From the NCBI GenBank assembly GCA_019637855.1, contig JAHBUX010000001.1, positions 209,337 to 273,336 on the forward strand: 64,000 bases of DNA. Reading direction: 5' to 3'. The stretch is from Bdellovibrionales bacterium. GTDB lineage: Bacteria > Bdellovibrionota > Bdellovibrionia > Bdellovibrionales > UBA1609. Shown here piece after piece: positions 34,485 through 42,105 of this stretch (its first letter is position 1; every line of letters starts with the position of its first letter). Below the pieces are notes generated by a model, which worked only from the letters and a program-made list of their open reading frames with translations, searched no databases and was not told the origin of the DNA. Made by a program: the position numbers and the translations under genes.

Positions 34485-35534
34485 ATGCGTTTTATCCTCC
34501 TTTTTTTCCTTCTGATTTCCGCCACTCACGTTTATGGCGCCGACGAGGAGGAAACGCAGCTAACGGCCTGGCAAACCACGCTTTTGCAACGTCACATTGA
34601 AGATTACTTCGATCCTAGAAAACCTGCGGACCTAAGCGCTCTGAAAACACTGCGGCCATGGCTACCAACCATCGATCTGTTGCTGCGGGAGCTTCATACA
34701 AAACAGGTGTCGTTCTCCTCTGCGGCGGTCAGGAAACGTGTATTGCCATTGATGACGGTCATTCACAACCTGGCGGCTCAAGCGCCCGCACCGCGCTCGA
34801 TAGGGCTACTAACCTCCTTACATGAAAGCCTATTTCGGCTGTTGCGCAACACGCCGGCTCCCAGCGAGATGCGGCATTTGATTTTAGAGCTCTATGATCG
34901 CTGGCACCTTTGGGGCATACGCGACCTTTGGTACATCCTCAATTTGCGCGAACTGCGCGACATCGTCGACAACTCCCATCGTTTAAGAGCCGTCTTACAA
35001 CACGCCAATCCAGAGGAGTCGGGTGAGATCGCCAATATGCTTCGTGCAGCGCGCCCGCATGATCTGGCCACTTACGCCCTGCTTATGGATACCGGTCATA
35101 TGGAAGAACGCGAACTTGTCGCATTTTTGCGGATGGCCTCCGTACAATTCGCAACATCGCTAGCACGTACTCCCAACGACGAATCGCGAGATTTCCGTTT
35201 AGGCGATATCCGTTCACGCCTGGTGGCGGGCAAACTCAATGTGATCATGGGACGCCTCGTGGGTGGTGATATGGTGGTTGGGTCCGCCTTTATCAAGGCC
35301 GCCAAAGTGGCGGAACGTGCGCAACCCCTGGGCTACGACCGCATGGATCGCCTGTTCTTCTTCACTCTGCTACAAGAGGGGCGTCTGGATTGGTATGACC
35401 GTGTCTCGTGGCGTCTGCGCGTGGATGAAGTGGCATATCAAAATATCCGCCTGCGCGATCGTTACCGTGTGCAAGACAATGTGATTGTGGTGAATTTCAC
35501 ACCAGCTGATCGTTGCGAGGACGACCTGGAGTAA
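34485..35534 (+). CDS. Secreted helical protein, unknown
   Basis: 349 residues. Signal peptide MRFILLFFLLISATHVYG. The rest is strongly helical and leucine/arginine-rich (LLTSLHESLFRLLRNTPAPS, LWYILNLRELRDIVDNSHRL), suggesting a helical-repeat periplasmic protein. No catalytic motif or family recognised. Ends 2 nt before the stop of the convergent FHA gene. Confidence 0.68.
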   Translation: MRFILLFFLLISATHVYGADEEETQLTAWQTTLLQRHIEDYFDPRKPADLSALKTLRPWLPTIDLLLRELHTKQVSFSSAAVRKRVLPLMTVIHNLAAQAPAPRSIGLLTSLHESLFRLLRNTPAPSEMRHLILELYDRWHLWGIRDLWYILNLRELRDIVDNSHRLRAVLQHANPEESGEIANMLRAARPHDLATYALLMDTGHMEERELVAFLRMASVQFATSLARTPNDESRDFRLGDIRSRLVAGKLNVIMGRLVGGDMVVGSAFIKAAKVAERAQPLGYDRMDRLFFFTLLQEGRLDWYDRVSWRLRVDEVAYQNIRLRDRYRVQDNVIVVNFTPADRCEDDLE

Positions 35535-35536
35535 AA

Positions 35537-37798
35537 CTACTCGGTCGCGGCTGTGCCGCCTTGACTGTGACGTTCAAAGAACTGTTTCTCGAATTTTTTA
35601 AAAGATTCCAAACGCACCTGAGATCCAAGCAGCGTGCGCATGCGATTCATGGCCTCAGTCTCATCCTGCTTCATTTTCTCCAGGCCTTGATTCACAAAAT
35701 CCGGATGTATGTTGGCGCGCTTGTCAGCCAATGTCTTCACTAAAGTGACCGAGATTCCCATCAGCTCGATGACTTTGCTTTCATCGGTCTTCCAGGTCTT
35801 GAGCATATAGGGCACCAAACCCTTTAAGAATTTTTTCTGAAAATCGTCGCTGGTGTAAGTCCCAGTGAAGTTTTCGGTGTACACCACATTGTCCACATAA
35901 GTGGCCTTGAAATCCGAGGTCTGTGGCGGATTGAAACGACGCGACTCTAGGTCGGCCTTGCGCTGCTCTTGCAAAGCCGCCACCTGACGTTGTACCGGAG
36001 ACTGTTCGTTCTTTAAAAAGAAGTACGCGTGTTCACCGATCAAAGCCATGGCCATCCCGACCATCGCGCCGGTCATACCGGTCATCCATTTTTGCCGGCG
36101 CTTAAGTTCAATCAAGGATGCCTGTTTGGCTTTGGCCGAGTCATCTTTGGTGATGGTGACGATCTGCTTTTCCAAAAGACTCCGCATCTCGTCCTGCAGG
36201 GGCTTAAGGTTTTTGGCTTTCGCGCTTGGATCTTCTTTCAAATAGGTCTCAACGGTCAGCGCCAGCTCGCGGCTCATCAGGTCTTTTTTGTCATGCAGCT
36301 CATCAACTAGTGACAGTTCCATCTCGCGAATCTTGCGCGTGGTTTGAAGCTTCAGCTCTTCCATATGCGCGATCTCTTCTTTACCGATCTTCGCCTTGTC
36401 GTCTTCAAGCTTGGCGCGCAACTGCAACAGCTCATTGGCGGCGTCATCTTGCGCGTCTTTGACGCGATTGTTGGCCGCGCGAATTTCATCATTCAATTTC
36501 GTCAAGGCGTCTTGCGAAGTCTTCACCTGTTTGTCGGTGATTTCGCGCTCATTTTTCATCTTTTCGATATCGGCGCGAAGATTGAGCAACTCCTGTTGGC
36601 CTTGCTCAGCCGCCTTGCTCGCCGCTTCGACCTGGTCAAGGAGACGTTTGGACTCCTCGGTTTTGCCCTTCAGCAAAGCCTCAACCTCGGTCAAGCGAGC
36701 GTCCTCTTGTTGGCGGGCCGCAGTCAGCTGTTGCGCCTGTGCCTTCAACGTCTTTATGGACTCAAGCTTGTCTTTGAGTTCGTTTTCGACTCCGGTACGC
36801 CGCTCTTCTAATTCAATGCGCAGCTCTTGGCGCTGATGGGCAGCCTCTTTCATAAGGTCTTCATCAAAACGTGCCAGGCGCTCGTCCATCACGACACGCG
36901 TTTTAGCCACCAACTCTTCTTCTTTTTTCTTCGAAATGTCTTCGGCTTCGACCAAGCGTTGCTCTTTGAGATCACGCGCGGTCTGCTGCGCCTCTTCGAG
37001 CATGCGTTCGCAATCTTCCTCAGTGCGTTTGCGCAGATCGGTCACGAAATTCTCCGTTTGCTGACGGATATCACCGGCTTTCTGACGGGCAACGTCCAGA
37101 ATGCGCACAGACTCTTCTTGTGACTTCTGATAAATCTGCTCGGAAGCCAGGTAGGCTTCGTTCATGCGACGCTGATAGACCTCGTCCATTTTGGCTTGCG
37201 TTTCGTGGGCCCGACGATAGATCTCTTCGACCCTGCGCTCGGCCTCGACTTCAGCCTCTTGTAAAAGCACGGCCGCCTTCTTCTGCGCCTCTTGCACTAC
37301 GCGTTCCGCCTGCTGCTGGGCATCGTCGGCCGGGCGAGCTAGGGGTGTAACGACCGAGCGACGCAATTCACGACGGTGAGTCGAGGTGCTGGTCACAATC
37401 GTATCCGAAACGGCACCACGTTCTTCTTGGCGCGGCACCGGGGGCGCACCCTCTTTGCGCATCAACGCTTCGATCGAAACGCTTAAGCGCACTCCCGCCT
37501 GGCCCATGGTCACTTGATCTTCGGGCTGCACGCGCGTCATCACATGCGGCTTCACGCGCTTGCCGTTCACGAATGTGCCGTTGGAAGACCCATGATCTTC
37601 GATCCAGCAAAACCCATCTTTTGTGCTGATGGTAAGGTGACGGCGACTGAGAGTTTCGTGTGAGATGGTCAAATGACAATCGTCGGCCCGGCCCACGGTG
37701 AGCATATCCCCGTCCACCTTCTTTGTGGTGGATCCCGCCGCTGTGGCGATTGTCACATAAAAGCCACCGGGTTTGCCGGTGGTGTTCTCACCTTTCAA
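35537..37798 (-). CDS. FHA-domain protein with long coiled coil and C-terminal membrane helix
   Basis: 753 residues; TTG start with AAGGTG 6 nt upstream, 10 nt after the TolQ/ExbB-like gene. The FHA domain at about 25-105 has the phosphothreonine-binding pattern LTVGRADDCHL, SRRHLTI and GSSNGTFVNG. A coiled coil of ~400 residues follows (QQAERVVQEAQKKAAVLLQE onward), then one membrane helix at about 570-595 (MTGMTGAMVGMAMALIGEHA) and a ~150-residue domain on the far side. It would present a phosphopeptide reader in the cytoplasm joined through the membrane to the periplasm. Last gene of a three-gene motor-like unit. Confidence 0.88.
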   Translation of the reverse strand: MKGENTTGKPGGFYVTIATAAGSTTKKVDGDMLTVGRADDCHLTISHETLSRRHLTISTKDGFCWIEDHGSSNGTFVNGKRVKPHVMTRVQPEDQVTMGQAGVRLSVSIEALMRKEGAPPVPRQEERGAVSDTIVTSTSTHRRELRRSVVTPLARPADDAQQQAERVVQEAQKKAAVLLQEAEVEAERRVEEIYRRAHETQAKMDEVYQRRMNEAYLASEQIYQKSQEESVRILDVARQKAGDIRQQTENFVTDLRKRTEEDCERMLEEAQQTARDLKEQRLVEAEDISKKKEEELVAKTRVVMDERLARFDEDLMKEAAHQRQELRIELEERRTGVENELKDKLESIKTLKAQAQQLTAARQQEDARLTEVEALLKGKTEESKRLLDQVEAASKAAEQGQQELLNLRADIEKMKNEREITDKQVKTSQDALTKLNDEIRAANNRVKDAQDDAANELLQLRAKLEDDKAKIGKEEIAHMEELKLQTTRKIREMELSLVDELHDKKDLMSRELALTVETYLKEDPSAKAKNLKPLQDEMRSLLEKQIVTITKDDSAKAKQASLIELKRRQKWMTGMTGAMVGMAMALIGEHAYFFLKNEQSPVQRQVAALQEQRKADLESRRFNPPQTSDFKATYVDNVVYTENFTGTYTSDDFQKKFLKGLVPYMLKTWKTDESKVIELMGISVTLVKTLADKRANIHPDFVNQGLEKMKQDETEAMNRMRTLLGSQVRLESFKKFEKQFFERHSQGGTAATE

Positions 37799-37808
37799 TA
37801 CTTACACC

Positions 37809-38738
37809 TTATGACGCTTTAGGCGCCTCTGCGGCGGGAGCGCCGCGCTGATGCGCATAACGCTTGGCCTCCGCGTTCACTGCGTCCTCGGCCAAAGCCT
37901 CGACCGGGTCGCGATGTTCATCAAAGTCTTTGTCGCCATGCGGGTATTCATTGTTGTCCGCGCGGTACCAAAGGAGATCGAGCGAAGTTTCGAAGCGATC
38001 CACCATCGAGAAAAACACACGTTCGGGGGAGAACAGCGTATTCCAGATGTGCATGCCAAGAGAAAACACGATGCCCACAATAGAGGTCTTCATAGCGAAG
38101 GCGATCTCTTGTAGGAAGCGATCCATAATGTTCTTGGTGTTTTCAAGGTCCTGGAGGTTCATACCGCCAAGCTCTTGCAAACCACCGGCGATACCGACGA
38201 AGGTTCCTAAGATACCAGTGATAACGAAGAGACCCGGCAGGAGGGAAACCAAGTCGTTCGCCGCCGCAACCGGCACCAAACCAAATACGCGATTGAAACA
38301 CGGGTTCTTGTGAAAGGTCGAACGCGTGATCTGCAAGAGTTTAGGAGTGTCGTTGGTCCACTTCAAAAACTTCAACTGATTCAAAATGTCACGCACCATA
38401 TAGGCGCAACCCGGCTTCACCAAAAAGATGCGATCGCTCAAGGCCATCATCTTGTCGCCTTTACGGCGTTTCAAACGATCACGCAGAGCGAAGGATTCGT
38501 AATAGGTGCGCTCGAGCAAGCGCTTCGACAGCGTGTAGAACGAAACGTTCTTCACCGGGCCAGGCTTTTCCGCGTCGATGTAGCGAGTGACTCGCTTTTC
38601 GAACTCCGCAGAGAACCATTCGTGACGTTTGGTGGTGTACCAAATCATATAGCGGCAGAACATGCCGGCCACGAAGACCAACCCCATCAGATAGGGCAAG
38701 CCGAGGATAAAATACTCAGCGAATTGTCTTGAACTCAT
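37809..38738 (-). CDS. TolQ/ExbB/MotA-type proton-channel protein
   Basis: 309 residues with three membrane helices, the TolQ/ExbB topology: about 10-35 (LGLPYLMGLVFVAGMFCRYM), 168-195 (LFVITGILGTFVGIAGGL, with the family LGT-xxG pattern) and 213-240 (FAMKTSIVGIVFSLGMHIWN). A cytoplasmic domain of ~130 residues separates helices 1 and 2; the Ala/Glu-rich tail is cytoplasmic. Such proteins form the pentamer that carries protons and turns around a TolR/MotB-type dimer. It lies between the MotB-like gene (9 nt upstream) and the FHA gene, so all three are likely made together. Confidence 0.88.
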   Translation of the reverse strand: MSSRQFAEYFILGLPYLMGLVFVAGMFCRYMIWYTTKRHEWFSAEFEKRVTRYIDAEKPGPVKNVSFYTLSKRLLERTYYESFALRDRLKRRKGDKMMALSDRIFLVKPGCAYMVRDILNQLKFLKWTNDTPKLLQITRSTFHKNPCFNRVFGLVPVAAANDLVSLLPGLFVITGILGTFVGIAGGLQELGGMNLQDLENTKNIMDRFLQEIAFAMKTSIVGIVFSLGMHIWNTLFSPERVFFSMVDRFETSLDLLWYRADNNEYPHGDKDFDEHRDPVEALAEDAVNAEAKRYAHQRGAPAAEAPKAS

Positions 38739-38747
38739 ACCATCCCC

Positions 38748-40472
38748 CTACTTCTTCCCGTCCATACTGAAACGGACGATCACCTTTTGAGCTTTCTTAC
38801 AATCGTTGACCTTACAGAATTCGGCGGCGCTTGACGGACTACGTCCCTGCACCTTCATCACTTCCAAAAAGCTACGACCCGAGACCTTCATCAAAGCCAA
38901 CAGGTCCTGCTGATGGGCGAACTCACCGTCTTTGTTGTTCACGAGATATGTGAAAATCGAGTTAGCTCGGCGGTAGCTGAGATCCATATTGTATTTCAAA
39001 GCGGCTTTGTCTTCGGCCTTGCCACTGCGTGGATCTACGAACCGTCCTTTATATGTAGGCGAAGCGAAGCCCACGACCTCGACCGAGGAGATCTTGTTGG
39101 CCACCTTGGAATTCCCAAAAAGAGACTTTGAATAGACGGGCATCGCGCGTTCGATCACGTCTTTCATCTGCGGCTTCAGGTTGGCCGAGTCGCTATCGAA
39201 GTAAGAGTCGCCGAAGTCCAATACGACTTCGCCCGTCCCCATATCCACATCGGCCTTGATCCCCGCCGCGGCAAAACCTTTTTTGATTTCACGGGCGATA
39301 TCGCGGCGAGCGTCCATCTCCTCTTTGGCTTTGGCTAACTGTCCTTCGGTGTCTTTCAGCTGACCGCTAAGACCGGCGATCTTGCCCTGCATCTCAGACT
39401 CTTTGCGAGCCGCGGCGGCGCGAAATTCACCTTCACGGCGGGCGCGTTCAGCGGCGTCCATTTTACCTTTACGAATCTCGGCGTCCAGAGCGGCGCGGGC
39501 CGACGCGCGATCAGCTGCATACTGACCTTTGATGGCGTCGATCTGACCTTTCAAGCCTTCAGCTTCTCCACGCGCGGCAGCCGCTTCGCCGCGAGCAGCC
39601 TGAGCATCACCGCGCGCCGCTTGCGCCTCTTGAGCCTTACGTTCCAACGCCGCTTGGGTTCCAGTCAAAGCTTGCTGAGTACCTAGCAGAGCTTTCTGCG
39701 TACCCTGGAGATCCGAAGAGAGTTTATCCAGCTGCTGCGAGTAGGTCTGATTGACCGCTTGCATCTGCTCGATTTTCTCTTGCGCTTGTTCCTGCAGCTT
39801 GCGAGTTTTCTCTTCAAACTGCTTTTTGGTCAGCTGCTTTTCTTTGTAAGCCGATAGCAACCGCTTCTTGTTTTGCTCCAAAGCCTCTTTGGCATCTTCG
39901 ATCTTGCGCTCTTGCGCTTCGATCGCGGCTTTCTTCTGGGCCACTTCGGACTCTAGACCTTCAATATTCTGCTGCTGTTCATCGATCGTTTGATCTTGTT
40001 CGTGAATAACCACGTTGCGATTTTGAATCTTGGTCTTCGCCACTTTGTTGGCGTTGATAATATTGCGGACCATCTGCTGATACTTGGTCAGAGCCACGGC
40101 CTTCTTGTCGTTCTCGAGAGCTTCACGGGCCAAACGCTCTTGATCACTTTTGGCCTCTTCCTTCAGCAAAGTGAGCTTATCCATGAGCTCGTTATATTCC
40201 TGCATTTCATCTTTGCTAGCGGACTTTTCGAGATAGTCAGTCTTCACTTGTTCATACATTTTGAGCTGGCTACGCAGCTCTTCGACCTGCATGGTGAGCT
40301 TTTGATTGTCGACTTGCGCTTTAATTGCATCGGTTCCAGTGCGTAAACTGGAGGTGACGTACAGAAGCAAAAAGATCGTGCTGAGACCGAGAAACAAATC
40401 GGAATACGACGTCCAAAAGCTGTCGCCGCTGCTACCGTGTCCGCCTTTATTTCTGTTGTAATCGAAAGCCAT
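38748..40472 (-). CDS. MotB/OmpA-like stator protein with extended coiled coil
   Basis: 574 residues, first gene of the unit. A single N-terminal helix reads FWTSYSDLFLGLSTIFLLLY; Asp25 sits where MotB has its proton-carrying Asp. A very long coiled coil (about 45-390) includes the repeated block AARGDAQAARGEAAAARGEA. The C-terminal OmpA-like peptidoglycan-binding domain (about 405-570) has VVLDFGDSYFDSDSANLKPQ and VVGFASPTYKGRF. MotB itself has only ~100 residues between helix and OmpA domain, so this arm would reach far across the periplasm. Confidence 0.88.
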   Translation of the reverse strand: MAFDYNRNKGGHGSSGDSFWTSYSDLFLGLSTIFLLLYVTSSLRTGTDAIKAQVDNQKLTMQVEELRSQLKMYEQVKTDYLEKSASKDEMQEYNELMDKLTLLKEEAKSDQERLAREALENDKKAVALTKYQQMVRNIINANKVAKTKIQNRNVVIHEQDQTIDEQQQNIEGLESEVAQKKAAIEAQERKIEDAKEALEQNKKRLLSAYKEKQLTKKQFEEKTRKLQEQAQEKIEQMQAVNQTYSQQLDKLSSDLQGTQKALLGTQQALTGTQAALERKAQEAQAARGDAQAARGEAAAARGEAEGLKGQIDAIKGQYAADRASARAALDAEIRKGKMDAAERARREGEFRAAAARKESEMQGKIAGLSGQLKDTEGQLAKAKEEMDARRDIAREIKKGFAAAGIKADVDMGTGEVVLDFGDSYFDSDSANLKPQMKDVIERAMPVYSKSLFGNSKVANKISSVEVVGFASPTYKGRFVDPRSGKAEDKAALKYNMDLSYRRANSIFTYLVNNKDGEFAHQQDLLALMKVSGRSFLEVMKVQGRSPSSAAEFCKVNDCKKAQKVIVRFSMDGKK

Positions 40473-41393: not shown

Positions 41394-41918
41394 TTAGTGA
41401 GTCATTGAATTGCGCGAAGCAAGCGCAGAAGCGGGCTTAACAGGCCCGCTTTTTTTTGCGTAAATGGCGTCACGCTCGCGCGTATACACCGCAACCAGAT
41501 CATTGAGCTGCTCCATGCTTAAGCGTTTGGTGAGTTCCGGGAAGAAGTCCTCTTGCTCGCCTTCAAGATGACGATGCAGAAGGTCCTTCACTACCTTGAG
41601 TTTGGCACGGAATTGATCCGTCAGCTCTTCCGCCTGCCCCATTTCTTTGAGCAATAGGTCTATAAGATCGTTTTCGACGTAGCTTTCTAAGACAAACTTG
41701 CGCAGAGGCCAGAAGATTTTGGACATATTCTCTTCGAGTAAGGCGTACAGAGTGTACTCTTCGGCTTTTGTACAGGCGCTGACGAGAGCTTTGAAGGTGC
41801 GGAAGCTATTGAAGCAGCCACCCTCACTGGGTTCGGGGCGGCCACAGTCTTCAGTCAAATGATCGGCCGCGCTTAGAATCCGCCGATGATCGGCGCGCAG
41901 CACTTCCACTAGCGTCAT
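41394..41918 (-). CDS. Hemerythrin-like HHE-domain protein
   Basis: 174 residues from the Met at 41918 (MTLVEVLRADHRRILSAADH). Di-iron hemerythrin pattern: His in DHRRIL, then further His/Glu ligands ending with LLHRHLEGEQEDFFPELTKR (HxxxE). Such proteins bind oxygen or nitric oxide, or sense redox state. The last ~20 codons include the terminator of the convergent gene (encoding KKSGP). Confidence 0.85.
   Translation of the reverse strand: MTLVEVLRADHRRILSAADHLTEDCGRPEPSEGGCFNSFRTFKALVSACTKAEEYTLYALLEENMSKIFWPLRKFVLESYVENDLIDLLLKEMGQAEELTDQFRAKLKVVKDLLHRHLEGEQEDFFPELTKRLSMEQLNDLVAVYTRERDAIYAKKSGPVKPASALASRNSMTH
41430..41457 (+). terminator. Rho-independent terminator of the Gly-rich secreted gene
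   Basis: 7-bp perfect stem AGCGGGC / GCCCGCT, loop TTAACAG, then seven further T. It is 44 nt after the stop and lies inside the 3' end of the convergent hemerythrin coding region. Confidence 0.85.
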
Positions 41919-42105
41919 TGCAACACCTCCGCGCAACAGCAATGAGCAAGGCGAATGCCACGAAGAGACAGGGATAGAACGGTCGCCGCCTTGAGGGTTT
42001 CGCCACCGACGAGGAAATTTGCCTCTGTAGCTTGGGCCTCATGCGTGCTCGCGGTGGTCTTTTGTTTGCACCGAGAGTTCACGAAATTCGACGGAGGAAT
42101 ATGGC

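What the first reader, a model, noticed from the sequence alone, without database searches (positions are those of the whole stretch)
35537..40472. Three-gene envelope motor candidate: MotB/OmpA coiled coil, TolQ/ExbB protein and FHA coiled-coil protein
Seen: three packed minus-strand genes (9 and 10 nt gaps). The first encodes one helix with an Asp at the MotB position, ~350 residues of coiled coil and an OmpA domain. The second is a three-helix TolQ/ExbB-type protein with the LGT-xxG pattern. The third has an FHA domain, ~400 residues of coiled coil, one membrane helix and a further domain. Known: TolQ/MotA-type channels turn around TolR/MotB-type dimers using protons; FHA domains bind phosphothreonine. 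Inference: a proton-driven machine that pulls on peptidoglycan across a wide periplasm and is gated by Ser/Thr phosphorylation, perhaps for gliding, envelope constriction or prey attack. I know no named system with this exact trio.
Basis: partly seen in the sequence, partly recalled or inferred. Interest (0 to 1): 0.78.

Follow-up and report, generated by a model that had tools for sequence, protein, structure and literature searches.

The report
Zorya-like envelope motor with FHA partner
Three neighbouring genes encode what looks like an ion-driven rotary motor related to the Zorya anti-phage motor, fitted with a long tether to the cell wall and a phosphoprotein-reading partner; the set is widespread in predatory bacteria related to Bdellovibrio, is passed between them as a unit, and I found no description of it.

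Summary
In detail: three packed minus-strand genes (gaps 9 and 10 nt) encode a MotB-like coiled-coil/OmpA protein, a TolQ/MotA-superfamily protein and an FHA/coiled-coil/one-helix protein. The order motB-motA-FHA is kept across families of the order and into Bacteriovoracia, with unrelated flanks. In 99 genomes of the order, MotA occurs in 62, MotB in the same 62 plus one fragment, and the FHA C-terminal domain in 57 of the 62.

The motor is neither Tol/Exb nor Glt. Both subunits independently match Zorya proteins best: the MotA profile hits only ZorA in the PDB (profile comparison: ZorA 95%, TolQ group 70%, flagellar MotA 8%), and the MotB C-terminal domain hits only ZorB. Channel residues match (Asp25, Thr179, Ser219). 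Yet the ZorA tail and recognisable Zorya effectors are missing, a ~350-residue coil is inserted in the ZorB-like subunit, and an FHA protein with an all-helical C-terminal domain without a PDB match is added. A GltG-like locus lies elsewhere in the genome.

Best reading: a wall-tethered, ion-driven rotary envelope motor with a phosphothreonine-binding adaptor, horizontally exchanged within Bdellovibrionota. Function is inferred. It is not strictly tied to intraperiplasmic predation. New variant of a known kind.

The parts
38748..40472 (-). Gene 1 (motB/zorB-like), 574 aa: short N-terminus, one membrane helix, long coiled coil, OmpA/ZorB-like wall-binding domain
40341..40400 (-). Membrane helix, residues 25-44, with invariant Asp25 (codon 40398-40400), the MotB/ZorB ion-carrying position
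   Evidence: invariant W20, D25; hydropathy
39273..40337 (-). Coiled coil, residues about 46-400 (about 52 nm if one straight helix), with a Gly/Ala-rich segment near residues 280-320 where the heptad signal drops
   Evidence: length varies among homologues
38751..39260 (-). OmpA-like peptidoglycan-binding domain, residues about 405-574, with invariant G-x-x-S-P-T-x-x-G and N-x-x-L-S-Y-x-R-A motifs and two invariant Cys
   Evidence: only PDB hit is type II ZorB 8vvi
37809..38738 (-). Gene 2 (motA/zorA-like), 309 aa: three membrane helices, short C-terminal tail; invariant Thr179 (codon 38202-38204) and Ser219 (codon 38082-38084) line the presumed ion path
35537..37798 (-). Gene 3, 753 aa: FHA domain, coiled coil, membrane helix, C-terminal helical domain
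37484..37720 (-). FHA domain, residues about 27-105; G36, R37, S51, R52, H54, D68, G74 invariant in 24 homologues
36119..37330 (-). Cytoplasmic coiled coil, residues about 157-560; very variable length in homologues
36014..36076 (-). Single membrane helix, residues about 575-595
   Evidence: 40 of 52 homologues above 1.5 on a 19-residue hydropathy window; most exceptions have longer tails, so the helix falls outside the piece tested
35540..36001 (-). Presumed periplasmic all-helical domain, residues about 600-753, motif P(x9)Y(T)DN(V)(L)YT
   Evidence: model pLDDT 93.8; no PDB match

Best explanation
The trio encodes a peptidoglycan-tethered, ion-driven rotary motor of the ZorAB class, adapted to an envelope task other than classical Zorya defence. 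Five copies of the ZorA-like protein surround two copies of the ZorB-like protein; ions pass at Asp25 against Thr179/Ser219 and turn the pentamer. The dimer's long coiled coil acts as a leash or lever whose end binds the wall. The FHA protein sits beside the motor as a one-helix membrane adaptor: outside, a helical domain; inside, a long coiled coil ending in an FHA domain that reads a phosphothreonine mark. It thus replaces the cytoplasmic tail that ZorA carries in one chain and couples the motor to a phosphorylation state or to a localised partner, much as GltG couples AglR. SHOWN here: the conserved unit, kinship of both motor subunits to ZorA/ZorB, channel residues, FHA binding residues, horizontal transfer of the unit. 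INFERRED: 5:2 assembly, rotation, wall binding, contact of the FHA protein with the motor, phospho-gating, and the cellular task (I favour sensing or relieving wall and envelope stress, or re-shaping the envelope).
For: Fixed gene order with changing flanks in families of the order and in Bacteriovoracia. Co-occurrence in 99 genomes: MotA 62, MotB 62 plus one contig-end fragment, FHA C-domain 57 of the 62 and 1 of 37 without MotA. MotA profile: PDB hits only ZorA (E 2e-7); hhalign 95% to ZorA-type proteins, 70% to TolQ/ExbB/AglR-type, 8% to flagellar MotA; model matches ZorA with Z 12.3, ExbB 11.7, TolQ 10.9 (a tie by itself). MotB C-domain: only PDB hit ZorB 8vvi; all 27 members match PADLOC ZorB models, best 5e-34. 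Channel residues align with E. coli ZorA residues 147 and 184. FHA binding residues invariant. Whole-unit transfer to a Bacteriovoracia genus (G132): its MotA is 66% identical to that of a Bdellovibrionaceae genome while rpoB is 60%, and 46% to a member of its own family while rpoB is 82%; MotB 53% versus 36%. A GltG-type FHA protein elsewhere in the genome lies near an AglR/TolQ-type stator gene, and AglR-GltG contact is published (PMC3169522).
Against: No experiment. FHA is not strictly required: one genus (g33, 5 genomes) and a sister group in Bacteriovoracia keep only the two-gene motor, and in two genomes the FHA gene lies away from the motor. A straight 52-nm coil does not fit a normal periplasm, so it must fold back or lie flat. 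The MotA model has moderate confidence (pLDDT 81). No complex was modelled.
Confidence: 0.58

Rival explanations
1. An uncharacterised anti-phage (or anti-predator) defence system derived from Zorya: wall perturbation trips the motor and the FHA protein passes an alarm to a cytoplasmic effector.
For: Both motor subunits are closest to Zorya; horizontal transfer and patchy loss are typical of defence genes.
Against: No nuclease, helicase or other obvious effector in the unit or conserved beside it; only 3 of 126 flanking genes match any defence model; long-term single-copy presence in most Bdellovibrio; no plasmid copy and no close viral copy.
Confidence: 0.17
2. A Tol/Ton-type force transducer: the FHA protein is the TolA/TonB equivalent whose periplasmic domain pulls on an outer-membrane partner.
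For: One membrane helix followed by a periplasmic domain, beside a stator; GltG is such a protein for AglR. A paralogue of the C-domain protein lies in an operon with a heptosyltransferase and a PAP2 phosphatase, i.e. envelope genes.
Against: No conserved polar residue in the membrane helix, no Pro-rich arm, no TonB/TolA-type C-domain; the wall-binding arm is on MotB instead.
Confidence: 0.15
3. A paralogue of the Agl/Glt gliding machine.
For: FHA domain matches GltG (52 bits) and Bdellovibrio glides.
Against: Match covers only the N-terminal 177 residues; stator is not AglR-like; no GltD/E/C neighbours; a GltG with AgmX/PglI C-domain and TPR/GltE-like neighbour is elsewhere in the genome.
Confidence: 0.06
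4. A structural scaffold linking inner membrane and wall in which the channel has lost motor activity.
For: Very long coiled coils in two of the three proteins.
Against: Asp25, Thr179 and Ser219 are invariant across families.
Confidence: 0.04

Closest known systems
Zorya ZorAB (types I and II anti-phage motor; PDB 8qyd, 8vvn, 8vvi)
   Same: Core helices of the A subunit, polar ring residues, Asp in the B helix, and a B-subunit wall-binding domain with the same GHxS/GFASPT ... NxxLSxxR layout
   Different: A subunit lacks the long cytoplasmic tail; B subunit has an inserted ~350-residue coil; gene order is B-A, not A-B; no ZorC/ZorD/ZorE recognised; an FHA protein is added; persistent single-copy chromosomal unit rather than part of a defence island
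AglRQS-Glt gliding machinery (Myxococcus, Bdellovibrio)
   Same: Stator gene accompanied by a one-helix FHA protein
   Different: Different stator family, one MotB-like protein instead of two TolR-like ones, different C-domain of the FHA protein, no Glt neighbours; a Glt-type locus exists separately in the genome
TolQR-Pal / ExbBD-TonB
   Same: Superfamily of A subunit; OmpA-like wall domain reminiscent of Pal
   Different: A subunit not recognised by the TolQ/ExbB Pfam model in the window protein; no TolR/ExbD domain; wall domain is fused to the B subunit
Flagellar MotAB
   Same: Asp position and OmpA-like domain of the B subunit
   Different: A subunit not similar (hhalign 8%), three rather than four membrane helices, no torque domain, long coil in B

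Membership tests
Zorya defence system | A subunit core related to ZorA | tested here: met
   scores are far below the curated ZorA cut-offs
Zorya defence system | B subunit wall domain related to ZorB | tested here: met
Zorya defence system | Long cytoplasmic tail on the A subunit (required for defence, PMC11890865) | tested here: not met
   309 aa, about 70 residues after the last membrane helix; homologues 300-375 aa, few longer
Zorya defence system | Accessory genes ZorC/ZorD or ZorE in the locus | tested here: not met
   third gene is an FHA protein with no PADLOC match; flanking genes without Zorya matches
Zorya defence system | Protects against phage | not testable with these tools
   needs an experiment
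MotA/TolQ/ExbB proton channel superfamily | Pfam MotA_ExbB (PF01618) match | tested here: inconclusive
   window protein no match; 9 of 64 homologues match, best E 1e-5; fold shared, Z 10-12 to ZorA, ExbB and TolQ
Agl/Glt gliding machinery | AglR-type stator with AglQ/AglS (TolR-like) partners | tested here: not met
   stator closest to ZorA; partner has an OmpA/ZorB domain
Agl/Glt gliding machinery | GltG: FHA protein with AgmX/PglI-type C-domain | tested here: not met
   only residues 24-200 match GltG, 52 bits against a cut-off of 650; a GltG-like protein with that C-domain is elsewhere in the genome
Tol-Pal / Ton | TolR/ExbD-type and TolA/TonB-type partners | tested here: not met
   no such Pfam domains in the trio; C-domain of the FHA protein without PDB match
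Flagellar stator | Flagellar MotA-type A subunit | tested here: not met
   hhalign 8%; flagellar MotA copies are separate genes in the genome
Phosphothreonine-binding FHA proteins | GR, SxxH and N-G-T binding residues | tested here: met
   G36, R37, S51, H54, G74 invariant; N73 in 21 and T75 in 23 of 24
Phosphothreonine-binding FHA proteins | Dependence on a Ser/Thr kinase | tested here: inconclusive
   kinases in 99 of 99 genomes, with or without the trio

The most novel reading that the evidence does not exclude
A new lineage of wall-tethered rotary machine: a Zorya-class motor whose output is not phage defence but a phosphorylation-gated mechanical task in the envelope of predatory and related bacteria, built from a split motor-plus-FHA adaptor instead of a motor with its own tail, and exchanged between lineages as a ready-made module. 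It would place Zorya within a wider family of envelope motors.
Probability: 0.35. Interest if true: 0.82.

Novelty: new variant of a known kind. Interest (0 to 1): 0.63.

Why it matters
Zorya is known as a defence motor with few described relatives. A widespread, chromosomal, tail-less relative with a wall leash and an FHA adaptor would show that ZorAB-type motors do other work, give a natural comparison for how the tail and effectors were added or lost, and offer a genetically tractable case: Bdellovibrio bacteriovorus HD100 carries the trio (1107724-1112616 in G032, whose length is that of HD100). It also tests whether Ser/Thr phosphorylation can gate a rotary motor.

Tried and rejected
(1) Lifestyle marker: loss in P. 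exovorus and B. qaytius first suggested a link to intraperiplasmic predation; rejected as strict because B. reynosensis (complete genome) also lacks all three genes, and two members of the genus g30 that holds those epibiotic species keep all or part of the trio. (2) Kinase co-occurrence: kinases are universal, no information. (3) Structure-based identity of the FHA C-domain: no PDB match by sequence or fold; absence from such lists does not prove a new fold. (4) Defence islands: 3 of 126 flanking genes match PADLOC. (5) Plasmids and viral contigs: no plasmid match, two distant core-only matches in viral contigs. (6) Genuine Zorya in the phylum: no match above the curated type I ZorA cut-off in 192 genomes; three long-tailed ZorA-like proteins found and used for comparison. 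(7) Literature: no paper pairs Bdellovibrio with a Zorya-like motor, and no HD100 locus tag for the trio could be tied to published Tn-seq results in the main texts; supplements could not be read. (8) First rpoB comparison used wrong frames for two genomes and was redone.
Full report
OBSERVATION. The three ORFs, strands, lengths and gaps are as described. The FHA gene starts with TTG and ends 2 nt from the stop codon of a convergent gene (34485-35534, plus strand), so the trio is probably a complete transcription unit; promoter and terminator scans gave nothing above chance.

CONSERVATION AS A UNIT. A protein search of 99 genomes of the order found the MotA-like protein in 62, one copy each except where split over contigs. 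Profiles of the other two proteins on the same genomes gave MotB in the same 62 plus one fragment at a contig end, and the C-terminal domain of the FHA protein in 57 of the 62; of the 37 genomes without MotA one has that domain, in a shorter paralogue. Fisher tests give p about 1e-26 and 1e-20, but the genomes are related, so these are descriptive only. Neighbourhoods show motB-motA-FHA in the same order and orientation, with different flanking genes almost everywhere. Exceptions: genus g33 (5 genomes) has the motor without the FHA domain; in two genomes (G044, G051) the FHA gene is elsewhere. A sister group in Bacteriovoracia has a two-gene motor with B subunits of 704 and 1057 aa and no FHA gene beside it, so the motor core is probably older than the FHA partnership. 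The family reaches the other classes of the phylum and a cultured marine strain, Bacteriovorax sp. BSW11_IV. No claim is made about other phyla, which were searched only with degenerate patterns in one collection scan.

IDENTITY OF THE MOTOR. Pfam MotA_ExbB finds nine other proteins in the genome but not this one. PADLOC and NCBIfam matches are to ZorA; because PADLOC holds no TolQ models this alone would be biased. Two less biased tests agree: in the PDB, which holds many ExbB, TolQ and MotA chains, the family profile finds only ZorA; and hhalign against groups drawn from these genomes gives 95% for ZorA-like proteins, 70% for the TolQ/ExbB/AglR group and 8% for flagellar MotA. Structure comparison puts ZorA first but within 1 Z unit of ExbB, so it is a tie by itself. 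The OmpA-like domain of the partner finds only type II ZorB in the PDB, and all 27 homologues match ZorB models. In the printed alignment to E. coli ZorA, residues 147 (Thr) and 184 (Ser), the polar residues near the ZorB Asp (residue roles from my knowledge of the Zorya structures; the Ser/Thr ring is also stated in PMC11890865), fall on invariant Thr179 and Ser219. Asp25 of the partner is invariant. So it works like, and is related to, ZorAB; but it is not a Zorya system by the features tested: the tail shown to be needed for defence (PMC11890865) and recognisable accessory genes are missing.

THE ADDED PARTS. (a) The B subunit carries about 350 residues of coiled coil between membrane helix and wall domain, about 52 nm if straight (0.15 nm per residue), more than a usual periplasm, so it must fold back, lie along the membrane or be slack. 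Length varies (median 568 aa for the whole protein), and several homologues carry Gly-containing heptad repeats there. (b) The FHA protein has an invariant phosphothreonine-binding set, a coil of very variable length, a membrane helix with positive charges mostly before it, which suggests FHA inside and C-domain outside, and a C-domain predicted with high confidence as all-helical (pLDDT 93.8) with no sequence or fold match in the PDB. A paralogue with the same layout stands in an operon with a heptosyltransferase, a mannosyltransferase-like protein and a PAP2 phosphatase, which hints at the envelope.

HISTORY. MotA and rpoB identities correlate weakly (Spearman 0.33). The window genome's MotA is 64-74% identical to those of most family f8 genomes compared but 43-53% to those of other genera of its own family, although rpoB is as close or closer to several of the latter. 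A Bacteriovoracia genome (G132) has MotA 66% and MotB about 50% identical to Bdellovibrionaceae, against 46% and 36% to a member of its own family, while rpoB says the reverse (60% and 82%); the MotA tree agrees. The trio has therefore moved between lineages, apparently as a unit, and has been lost often. Flanks are not defence islands.

DISTRIBUTION AND LIFESTYLE. Contig lengths identify HD100 (3782950), Tiberius, exovorus JSS (2657893), qaytius (3348710) and reynosensis LBG001 (3582323): exact lengths from memory, sizes in Mb confirmed by the table in PMC11656739. The last three lack all three genes. Two of them are epibiotic, but reynosensis is counted as intraperiplasmic, so the link to invasion is at most loose.

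MECHANISM. Shown: the items above. Inferred by analogy with ZorAB and MotAB: ions flow past Asp25 when the B dimer is held by the wall, and the A pentamer turns. Inferred by analogy with AglR-GltG, which interact in a two-hybrid assay (PMC3169522): the FHA protein's membrane helix docks on the pentamer. Speculative: a phosphothreonine mark recruits or releases the motor; the task is wall or envelope remodelling, or stress sensing.

VERDICT. Real, conserved, apparently undescribed; a new variant of the ZorAB/MotAB kind.

Noticed in passing
L222:6900-8528 (G000 contig 10); also L223:4886-6475 and L224:4403-6037: A shorter FHA/coiled-coil/one-helix paralogue with the same C-terminal domain stands in an operon with a heptosyltransferase, a mannosyltransferase-like protein and a PAP2 phosphatase; same gene-size pattern in two relatives.
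   Followed up: partly
L186:5803-9890, L187:5839-8847: Sister two-gene motors in Bacteriovoracia with B subunits of 1057 and 704 aa and no FHA gene beside them; their wall domain motif (GHSSP, GHASPRYGGKY) is intermediate between ZorB and the trio.
   Followed up: partly
window 39273-40337 and L078:7243-8943: Gly-containing heptad repeats (GQLSGELGKTKGEL-like) in the coil of the MotB-like protein, with changing copy number among homologues.
   Followed up: no
L236, L237: ZorA-like proteins of about 285 aa without a tail in family f17, distinct from the trio (GVLLMTF in place of GTF-type motif); unknown partners.
   Followed up: no
L084, L118, L120: Contigs filed under Actinomycetota, Thioalkalivibrio and Streptomyces MAGs carry Bdellovibrionota-type trio genes; probably misbinned.
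   Followed up: no
L230:6883-13960 (G000 contig 21): A GltG-like protein (287 bits) near a TolQ-type stator gene and a large TPR protein: a Glt-type locus separate from the trio.
   Followed up: yes
window 41394-41942: Hemerythrin-like protein matching the PA2171 persister family weakly (45 bits, below cut-off).
   Followed up: no
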